Origin: Beroe forskalii
Taxonomy: Eukaryota; Ctenophora; Nuda; Beroida; Beroidae
Direction of reading: 5' to 3'
Length of the DNA: 64,000 nt
NCBI GenBank assembly: GCA_011033025.1
Contig: WFMF01000166.1
Coordinates: 124,001-188,000, forward strand
Of the stretch, positions 49,001 to 50,256 are shown piece by piece. The stretch's first letter is position 1. Each line of letters begins with the position of its first letter. The notes under the pieces were generated by a model that was given only the letters and a program-made list of their open reading frames with translations, was not told the DNA's origin and did no database searches. Both the position numbers and the translations under genes were made by a program.

Positions 49001-50256
49001 TTGAGAATAAAATCAATGATTATCGCTAGTTGCATATAAACACTAAACTGCATCCTTTTCAGGAGGCGTTGGCGTTCACGCAGATGGTATGGGGGAAGAC
49101 AGTGCGGATAGGTGGGTGCCTAACTTGGTTTGGGAACATTGGCTTCATCATCGTCAACTACTGGCCCCCTGGAAACGTTGTGGGACAGTTCCTTGAAAAC
49201 GTCTTCCCGGTCCTATACCCGGACATTCACTGGACCGGTCTTCCAGTTTCACATCCAGAAACTCAGTGGAGCTATAACAGTCAGAAGTCAACAAAAGGAG
49301 CACCTCCAATACCCCAGGCGTGGAGTGATAGCGTGCCCAGTAGTAACGATGAAAGAGAATATGAAGGAGAAGATGAGGAGGAGGATTCTTTGTTTAACTC
49401 AGCCGGATCTGAGGAGGAACGGAGCTACAGAGAAACCTGCGATGAGAGCACTTCAGAACACTCGAGTTTGGAGACTCAAAGTGATATTAGTGGCACAAAA
49501 AGTACTGATAAGCACGATGAATGTGCAACTGATTCAGAGTCTGGTAATGAGTTACATGGAAATAACGCCATCTACCAACCTAACAACCACACACCTGAAC
49601 AAGAGCAGGACACACCGTCCTCAGACCAGGGTAACTCGAACAATGCAACGGATGAAGACTATGTGTACATGGAGCATCCTAAGACAAATCAGTATGAAAA
49701 CCTCAATCCTTCTCTGTTGCTAGACGATTCAGCAAGGAGAGAAGTGGAGAAGGAAGGGGATGAGGGGGATCAGTACATGGTAATGCACCCCTCCACATCA
49801 TCAGACTGTGATAACAATGCCGGCAGCCTCCACGGTGGGGAGCTACAGATGGACTCTGATAATGTGTACGAGGATATAGATACTTACAGGGAACGGGACC
49901 ATGAATACGAGACATTGTCAAGATTCGAGGTGAAAAAGAGAAGGGCAGGGAAGGAGCGTAAAGCCACGAACTGTGGAAAGGATGTATCTCGAATGATGGT
50001 ACAGAGTGGGCTGGCTCTGGCAGTTTACCAAGAACCCGAAATGTCAGGAGGAATGGAGGATCAGGAGAACGGCTCGGAGGATCAGGCAATAGCACCAACC
50101 ACAGCACAGGATTCATTCAATGATAATACCACTTTTGTGATTGCACCAGAGCCCGATATTGAAAACGGGCTTATCGAAGAAGAGTGGGATGAAGAAGGTT
50201 ACACCAGGAATTCGATTCTAGAAGTGCTCGTTTCTCATGAGATCACCAACTCCTGA
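40046..50256 (+). CDS. GAPR-1-like CAP-domain protein with long acidic, ITAM-bearing tail
   Basis: Exons: 40046-40162 (DLGTEEHDLEVRIGCEEDTE, acidic), 41318-41423 (ERLEKSRLHQLDSLECSMCG), then 48290-48344 (LGEFEKEMLAAHNALRQ; an earlier acceptor gives 48255), 48455-48515 (HGAKHVLWSSKLTSYAQRWG), 48799-48923 (QNVGVVLGRKMAVPKIVAQC, VETWYANTARRYDY) and 49063-50256 (AFTQMVWGKTVRIGG, FIIVNYWPPGNVVGQFLEN, then ~330 residues of tail). CAP1 (FTQMVW) and CAP2 (VNYWPPGN) motifs and the N-terminal HNALRQRHG are typical of GAPR-1/GLIPR2-type intracellular CAP proteins; no signal peptide is seen. The tail is Glu/Asp/Ser/Asn-rich and contains YVYM, YENL, YMVM and a spaced YEDI/YETL pair. A small exon between 48515 and 48799 may be missing. 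The start codon is not certain. Confidence 0.7.
41960..42310. repeat. Degenerate ~40 bp tandem repeats
   Basis: Loose repeats of TTAGTACAAAAAACACATACTT plus TGCTTTCTTC. The same kind of sequence recurs at 47690-47960, so this is a dispersed AT-rich satellite in the CAP-gene intron. Confidence 0.6.
42341..42896. mobile_element. Short TIR element (perfect 24 bp inverted ends)
   Basis: Left end TACCTTAGTACAGAATATTT plus ATAC (42341-42364) is the exact reverse complement of 42873-42896. Subterminal TTTATACG motifs are repeated on both sides. Inside lies a possible exon-like stretch 42535-42583 (ADYPCKTFRFPSGVLK, AG and GTAAGT borders) that would be phase-compatible with the flanking CAP gene; it may instead belong to the element. 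Confidence 0.7.
43211..43985. repeat. Minisatellite, ~99 bp unit
   Basis: About seven units containing CTTATCCTGGGCTATACCGC, ACCTTGGGCTTCTGGAATGC and GCCTTGGGCTAACCCCCAAA. Several frames stay open because the unit length is close to a multiple of three and stop codons are absent, but codon content is repetitive and there is no start or domain. Intronic. Confidence 0.9.
44296..44872. repeat. (TTAG)n microsatellite, about 575 bp
   Basis: Nearly perfect TTAG/AGTT tetranucleotide repeat with a few interruptions (for example AGGTAG near 44741, ATTTAG near 44800, AGTAAG near 44830). The left edge (44296-44400) is degenerate with TCAGTCAGTCGG variants. It lies in the CAP-gene intron. Confidence 0.97.
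45007..45223. mobile_element. Near-perfect 217 bp palindrome (hairpin MITE)
   Basis: The ends CCTTTAAAAAGTTTCTCACA and TGTGAGAAACTTTTTAAAGG are complementary, and the complementarity runs to the centre TGTCCCGAATGATATCATTC. Arms differ at only a few positions, so it is young or maintained. Confidence 0.9.
45455..46095. repeat. Degenerate ACTCGACTCGGCCA repeat tract
   Basis: Irregular ~20-40 bp repeats of CTCGACTCGGCCACT-like words with many substitutions. No open frame of note. The remainder of this intron (46.1-48.2 kb) is AT-rich without recognised features, apart from a small GC palindrome at 46430-46467 (TTCGCGCGCGCATAAAT / ATTTATGCGCGAA) and AT repeats at 47.69-47.96 kb. Confidence 0.6.

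What the first reader, a model, noticed from the sequence alone, without database searches (positions are those of the whole stretch)
49063..50256. CAP-domain protein with a consensus ITAM and YxxM motifs
After a GAPR-1-like CAP core without signal peptide, the tail contains NVYEDI, nine residues, then YETL at 49867-49917: exactly YxxI/L-x(6-12)-YxxI/L with an acidic lead. It also has YVYM (49660-49671), YENL (49693-49704) and YMVM (49774-49785), typical SH2 and PI3K p85 docking forms. I know of no CAP protein joined to an ITAM. It would link a membrane-associated CAP domain to Syk/Src-type signalling.
Basis: partly seen in the sequence, partly recalled or inferred. Interest (0 to 1): 0.82.

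Follow-up and report, generated by a model that had tools for sequence, protein, structure and literature searches.

The report
CAP protein with phosphotyrosine docking tail
In an unnamed animal genome, a relative of the GAPR-1 protein carries a long tail with conserved tyrosines of the kind that signalling proteins grip once phosphorylated; it looks like an undescribed signalling scaffold, though its wiring is untested.

Summary
In detail: every motif lies at the stated coordinates, in one exon with the end of a CAP domain. Three upstream exons complete the domain as modelled (Pfam CAP 34.9 bits, cut-off 21.1). A second copy 24.9 kb downstream keeps frame, splice sites and motifs (dN/dS 0.04 in CAP, 0.25 in the tail). 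Five unnamed relatives have the same CAP end fused in frame to a tyrosine tail.

The ITAM reading holds only in part: the motif is in the window gene, its copy and P0001, not in P0002-P0005. What persists is YxxM and YxN (6 of 6), H[ED]YETLS and a tail YxxP (5 of 6). Tyrosine is the best-kept tail residue.

Best reading: a multi-SH2 docking scaffold that works like IRS or Gab, headed by a CAP domain without its metal site. The genome holds likely partners: p85-type and Src-type SH2 exons and a Shark-type SH2-ankyrin-SH2-kinase gene; no classical Syk was seen in a limited search. N-terminus, cell location, organism and phosphorylation are unsettled. No such CAP protein appeared in six literature searches.

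The parts
48259..48344 (+). exon 1 as modelled (start Met, or first codons after an upstream exon): CAP helix with HNALR
   Evidence: Donor GTTTAA here; in the second copy L060 a GTTT duplication makes it GTTTGT at the same place. 86 of 86 aligned bases identical in L060. A polypyrimidine tract and CAG at 48252-48254 may be an acceptor, so the true N-terminus is open.
48455..48594 (+). exon 2: CAP middle, ends ...DVSYG
   Evidence: Acceptor TTTCCCAG; donor GTAATT here, GTAAGT in L060; 140 of 140 bases identical. This model scores 34.9 bits with Pfam CAP against 31.1 for the shorter alternative.
48799..48923 (+). exon 3: CAP, from GQNV to ...EAPQS
   Evidence: Acceptor CTGTCCAG, donor GTATGT; aligned to GAPR-1 and Pry1 in joined form.
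49063..50256 (+). exon 4: C-terminal part of CAP and the whole tail, to TGA
   Evidence: P0001 and P0002 end at nearly the same place, P0003 and P0004 run on.
49660..49671 (+). YVYM (YxxM, p85 SH2 type by recalled rule)
   Evidence: YEYM in L060 and P0001, YVYM in P0002
49693..49704 (+). YENL (YxN, Grb2 SH2 type by recalled rule)
   Evidence: YENL in L060, YDNL in P0001, YANM in P0002
49774..49785 (+). YMVM (YxxM)
   Evidence: same in L060; YMTM in P0001 and P0002
49867..49878 (+). YEDI, first half of the ITAM
   Evidence: same in L060; YEDL in P0001; no ITAM in P0002-P0005
49906..49917 (+). YETL, second half of the ITAM; core of conserved H[ED]YETLS
   Evidence: present in L060 and P0001-P0004, absent from P0005
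50026..50037 (+). YQEP (YxxP, Crk/Nck SH2 type by recalled rule) inside MVQSGLALAVYQEP
   Evidence: same in L060, P0001, P0002; YSQP in P0003 and P0004. YxxP was not tested against shuffles.

Best explanation
The gene encodes a 514-residue (as modelled) intracellular docking scaffold. A GAPR-1/Pry1-like CAP domain, with the four metal-site residues replaced, is the folded head; it probably gives membrane or lipid association or self-assembly. The acidic tail is the signalling part: Src-type kinases phosphorylate its tyrosines, and the sites then gather SH2 proteins: PI3K p85 at YxxM, Grb2-type at YxN, Crk/Nck-type at YxxP, and an unknown reader at H[ED]YETLS. In the window gene and closest kin, YEDI/L...YETL could also hold a tandem-SH2 kinase such as Shark. 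Shown: one frame, CAP homology, coding constraint, conserved tyrosines, candidate partner exons. Inferred: cell location, disorder of the tail, phosphorylation, each named SH2 partner, CAP function.
For: CAP: Pfam 34.9 bits against cut-off 21.1; best solved relatives Pry1, GAPR-1 and a plant PR-1, E 5.8e-11 to 2.1e-10 (letters with one extra G). Real gene: second copy with splice sites at the same places; dS 0.062/dN 0.003 over 169 CAP codons and dS 0.143/dN 0.036 over 344 tail codons. Fusion conserved in P0001-P0005. YxxM in 6 of 6, with 2, 2, 3, 12, 10 and 3 copies in window and P0001-P0005, each more than shuffles give (p 0.037 or less); YxN in 6 of 6 but above shuffles (p < 0.05) only in P0003-P0005. 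Tyrosine is kept in window, P0001 and P0002 in 7 of 13 places against 66 of 342 for all tail residues (Fisher p 0.005), just ahead of Met with 4 of 8. No stretch of the model looks like a membrane span (best 17-residue mean hydropathy 1.41, inside the CAP domain), so head and tail lie on one side. Partner exons: p85 N-SH2 type, Fyn-related/Src type, Shark-type gene. The head has 2 cysteines, and one of them is Ser in the second copy; six other CAP open frames of this genome have 6-10 each over the frame.
Against: No phosphorylation, binding or location data. The first exon is unsettled: of 13 candidate upstream exons the one with the best-scoring donor (45282-45358) starts with a hydrophobic, signal-peptide-like stretch; if real, the protein would enter the secretory pathway. 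The AlphaFold model of exon 4 has mean pLDDT 34 and is of no use. The PI3K iSH2 profile found nothing in the genome. SH2 assignments rest on recalled motif rules. P0005 lacks H[ED]YETLS and a tail YxxP. YxN in the window is at chance level. P0003 and P0004 are close kin, so the six sequences are not independent.
Confidence: 0.6

Rival explanations
1. A true ITAM adaptor: the pair YEDI-x9-YETL is the main functional site and recruits the tandem-SH2 kinase Shark (or an unseen Syk) after Src-type phosphorylation, as Draper does in flies.
For: ITAM in the window gene, the second copy and P0001; under 2% in shuffles of the window tail, 4% for P0001 at x6-12; Shark-type gene in the genome; Draper-Shark precedent (passages of PMC8092387).
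Against: Absent from P0002-P0005, while YxxM stays in all of these and YETLS in P0002-P0004. Spacing 9 in the window is loose. No transmembrane part. Classical Syk not seen.
Confidence: 0.15
2. A secreted or lumenal CAP protein whose acidic-context tyrosines are sulphated, not phosphorylated; an upstream exon supplies a signal peptide.
For: The best-scoring candidate first exon, 45282-45358, codes a hydrophobic start; several tyrosines sit in acidic context, which also suits sulphation (recalled); other CAP frames of this genome begin with signal-peptide-like stretches by eye (L004, L005, L006, L008).
Against: Sulphation does not explain recurrent +2 N and +3 M/P. The head has only 2 cysteines. 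The upstream exon is one of 13 candidates, found by a crude donor score (5 of 6) with no other support.
Confidence: 0.14
3. The YxxM/YxxL sites mainly serve as sorting signals (Yxx-hydrophobic) for adaptor complexes in vesicle traffic, fitting a relative of Golgi-associated GAPR-1.
For: Six Yxx[MLIV] sites in the window tail, 2.0 expected.
Against: Sorting signals usually sit on membrane cargo (recalled); no membrane span. Does not explain 10-12 YxxM sites in P0003/P0004 or the tail YxxP.
Confidence: 0.06
4. Chance motifs in a weakly constrained acidic tail.
For: Only 117 of 342 tail residues are shared with P0001; single-motif p-values in the window are modest; tail bases are no better kept between copies (94.7%) than introns 2 and 3 (96-97% where aligned).
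Against: dN/dS 0.25 in the tail between copies; tyrosine best kept; YxxM in 6 of 6.
Confidence: 0.05

Closest known systems
GAPR-1 (GLIPR2) and yeast Pry1 CAP domains
   Same: CAP domain; best sequence relatives among solved structures.
   Different: Four metal-site residues replaced; about 345 residues of tyrosine-rich tail after the head, where chain 1smb (GAPR-1, 154 residues) has none.
IRS / Gab / DOK / LAT docking scaffolds (recalled)
   Same: Works like them: a tail with several SH2-type tyrosine sites.
   Different: Those have PH, PTB or membrane-anchor heads; here a CAP domain. No sequence kinship shown.
Draper / MEGF10 and other ITAM receptors
   Same: ITAM-like pair; Src-type and Shark-type kinase exons in the genome (passages of PMC8092387).
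   Different: No transmembrane segment in the model, no EGF repeats; ITAM not kept in P0002-P0005.
SmVAL4 and tablysin-15, CAP proteins lacking metal-site residues (passages of PMC4118828)
   Same: CAP domain without the histidines; SmVAL4 is reported there to bind cholesterol.
   Different: No tyrosine docking tail is mentioned in the passages seen.

Membership tests
CAP superfamily | Significant match to the CAP profile | tested here: met
   34.9 bits, E 3.1e-8, cut-off 21.1 (joined exons)
CAP superfamily | Motifs HNxxR and G(EQ)N(ILV) (definitions read in PMC4118828) | tested here: met
   HNALR and GQNV in the model
CAP superfamily | Metal-site tetrad (His54, Glu65, Glu86, His103 of GAPR-1; the two Glu numbers recalled) | tested here: not met
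   In the alignment to 1smb, read by eye, the places hold I, Q, N and A. The last place is A, A, G, A in window, P0001, P0003, P0005; P0002 and P0004 begin after it. Tetrad loss is known in the superfamily, so membership stands.
ITAM-bearing signalling proteins | YxxL/I-x(6-12)-YxxL/I | tested here: met
   x9 in the window and L060, x7 in P0001
ITAM-bearing signalling proteins | Motif conserved among relatives | tested here: not met
   2 of 6 sequences; absent from P0002-P0005
ITAM-bearing signalling proteins | Phosphorylated motif binds a tandem-SH2 kinase | not testable with these tools
   Only the presence of a Shark-type gene was shown
IRS/Gab/DOK-like docking proteins | Several SH2-type tyrosine sites in one tail | tested here: met
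   disorder of the tail is inferred from composition and low pLDDT, which is weak
IRS/Gab/DOK-like docking proteins | PH or PTB head domain | tested here: not met
   No such Pfam match in exon 4 or the joined head; it works like these families but is not filed in them. An unseen upstream exon was not tested.
GAPR-1-type membrane anchoring | N-terminal myristoylation at Gly2 (recalled) | tested here: inconclusive
   Model starts MRLE; true first exon unknown

The most novel reading that the evidence does not exclude
An undescribed animal signalling family in which a CAP domain without its metal site serves as the sensor or anchor of a phosphotyrosine scaffold that feeds PI3K, Grb2, Crk and, in some members, an ITAM-reading Shark kinase: CAP proteins used as intracellular signal hubs rather than secreted factors.
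Probability: 0.45. Interest if true: 0.82.

Novelty: new variant of a known kind. Interest (0 to 1): 0.66.

Why it matters
[quoted passage not shown] A CAP head fused to a conserved SH2-docking tail would tie the fold to tyrosine-kinase signalling inside the cell and give a directly testable role for a CAP domain. It would also add a new head type to the scaffolds that link kinases to PI3K, perhaps in an early-branching animal (a guess).

Tried and rejected
Viral contigs: no relative (21 stretches matched a pattern, none confirmed). A third protein search from the P0003 CAP end gave only P0003-P0005. Structure prediction of exon 4 with five sequences: mean pLDDT 34, not used, no fold search run. 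PI3K iSH2 family search of the genome: 0 matches, against the p85 reading; the domain may be split by introns, and an SH2 exon whose best PDB matches are p85 alpha was found. SH2 exon on C467: best match RasGAP, ZAP-70 and SYK lower, so not counted as Syk. KWPVKW pattern: 3 places, one in the Shark-type gene; near the other two, my motif scan showed no kinase frame on the strand of the match (frames of 30 residues or more only). Organism: no ligand-gated channel domain and no mir-10, which would suit a sponge, but both answers warn that nothing rang in any control; the COX1 search did not complete. 'Sponge' is a guess only. The shorter exon 2 (donor at 48516) was set aside on score and on the second copy. 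An early inference of a single copy from a motif pattern was wrong: the second copy reads GGSLTWFG, which the pattern cannot match. In one search the 'acidicYxxM' and '[DE]Y' counts can count one site twice; not used. One search printed the first donor of the second copy as GTTTAA because of how a GTTT duplication was aligned; it is GTTTGT. The only paper holding both 'CAP superfamily' and a word starting with ITAM has it in a place name. On re-checking I lowered the best explanation from 0.62 to 0.60 and raised the secreted rival from 0.12 to 0.14, since the hydrophobic candidate exon has the best, not a weak, donor score.

Full report
What is there. The ORF 49030-50256 (+) holds an exon starting at 49063 after a CTTTTCAG acceptor. 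Its first 50 or so residues match the C-terminal part of CAP domains weakly (best E 0.004); the rest is an acidic tail: 23% D+E, 7% K+R, 14 tyrosines in 348 residues. Three upstream exons complete the CAP domain: 48259-48344, 48455-48594, 48799-48923, all with GT-AG introns. The joined head scores 34.9 bits with Pfam CAP (cut-off 21.1); a shorter alternative scores 31.1. Best solved relatives are Pry1, GAPR-1 and a plant PR-1 (the letters typed there carried one extra Gly).

Second copy. When the own-genome protein search at last answered, it showed a second copy on the same contig at C210:197931-199175, 93% identical over the 408-residue query, 24.9 kb downstream and outside the window. It has the same four exons with splice sites at the same places; its first donor is GTTTGT and its exon 2 donor GTAAGT. 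Exons 1 and 2 are identical (86 of 86, 140 of 140 aligned bases). Exon 3 is 97.6%, the CAP part of exon 4 96.8% and the tail 94.7% identical, while introns 1-3 are 85, 96 and 97% identical where aligned; so the bases alone do not set exon 4 apart from introns, but the codons do: dS 0.062/dN 0.003 in the CAP part and dS 0.143/dN 0.036 in the tail. The named motifs stay, YVYM as YEYM; the ITAM is unchanged apart from one Arg-to-Lys in the spacer. One tail tyrosine (171 of exon 4) is lost and others appear in the second copy.

Relatives. Three protein searches gave five relatives, all from the source 'ena', without organism names. In all five the CAP end is joined in frame to a tyrosine tail. In P0003 the letters before the CAP end (FLFQ) look like a read-through intron end, as in the window, which suggests the same intron site. 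YxxM counts in window, P0001, P0002, P0003, P0004, P0005 are 2, 2, 3, 12, 10, 3; YxN 1, 2, 1, 4, 4, 2; ITAM (x6-12) 1, 1, 0, 0, 0, 0. H[ED]YETLS is in all but P0005, and so is a YxxP in the tail (the YWPP of the CAP end is not counted; YxxP was not tested against shuffles). In the three-way alignment of window, P0001 and P0002, tyrosine is the tail residue most often kept in all three: 7 of 13, with Met 4 of 8, against 66 of 342 for all tail residues (Fisher p 0.005); against P0001 alone, 10 of 13 and 117 of 342 (p 0.002). Results against: YxN in the window is at chance level, the window's own p-values are only 0.009-0.037 without correction, P0005 keeps only the YxxM/YxN part, and P0003 and P0004 are close kin.

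Metal site. His54 and His103 are named as part of GAPR-1's proposed metal site in PMC7554809 (one passage). In the alignment to 1smb, read by eye, the four tetrad places hold I, Q, N and A. The SmVAL4 paper (passages) gives precedent for a CAP protein with only one tetrad residue that still binds cholesterol, and gives the motifs HNxxR and G(EQ)N(ILV), both present here.

Partners in the genome. The SH2 search gave 35 matches, 30 of them as loci, whose frames I read. C825 holds SH2, ankyrin repeats, a second SH2 and a tyrosine kinase in that order; Pfam confirmed 7 of 8 pieces (one ankyrin piece below its cut-off, the first piece unmatched). The kinase piece matches SYK best among the PDB hits after one EGFR construct. 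That order is the Shark layout (recalled). Shark is reported to mediate ITAM-dependent signals (passages of PMC5978004, and PMC8092387). A p85-type SH2 exon is on C30, in two places; a Fyn-related/Src-type SH2 exon on C837, with SHP-2 chains next in the list. The iSH2 profile found nothing. A classical Syk was not seen, but no full kinase survey was made.

Mechanism. The most constant features are YxxM and YxN with, in five of six, YETLS and YxxP, on a tail that follows the head without a membrane span. That is what docking scaffolds look like (recalled rules for p85, Grb2, Crk). I commit to a cytosolic scaffold at 0.60. The weak point is the N-terminus: a pyrimidine-rich block and CAG just before the modelled start are identical in both copies, so an upstream coding exon is possible. 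A crude scan for a single upstream first exon gave 13 candidates; the one with the best donor is hydrophobic, which would favour the secreted rival.

Novelty. No paper joining a CAP protein with an ITAM, YxxM or SH2 docking was seen in the listings. These are listings: 1 of 1, 12 of 3,727, 12 of 17, 10 of 50, 0 of 0 and 8 of 12 papers were shown. The one is a false match. The library holds open-licence PMC papers only, so this is not proof of absence. I rate it a new variant of a known kind: known fold, known docking motifs, new joining.

Noticed in passing
G000:C210:197081-199200 (L060), about 9 kb past the window end: Second copy of the CAP-tail gene with an open frame throughout as modelled, 93% identical over exon 4, same exons.
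   Followed up: yes
L059 (G000:C958:541501-544500, - strand): Open frame of at least 812 residues with a CAP match, by eye a membrane span (WATFFSVGTVVSILIVVIGYVTFTFV) and a tail of HWDSMQPSNELREGE-type repeats: a possible CAP membrane receptor.
   Followed up: partly
L039-L040 (G000:C825:438675-451800): SH2-ankyrin-SH2-tyrosine kinase gene of Shark type.
   Followed up: partly
window 51538-52008 (+): Open frame of 156 residues with a hydrophobic stretch near its start and a charged tail, no Pfam match; downstream of the CAP gene, relation unknown.
   Followed up: no
window 8608-12486 (+): LDL-receptor class A repeats followed by a rhodopsin-type seven-helix receptor.
   Followed up: no
window 1703-2941 and 29463-30853 (+): A sulfotransferase gene and, by eye, a very similar second copy read in two overlapping frames.
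   Followed up: no
window 59336-59914 (+) and 58158-58442 (+): KH domain (Pfam KH_1) and, by eye, a nearby stretch similar to its end, without a KH match.
   Followed up: no
G000:C913:854635-854760: Short frame 45% identical to the CAP end of exon 4 over 42 residues; possibly a distant relative.
   Followed up: no
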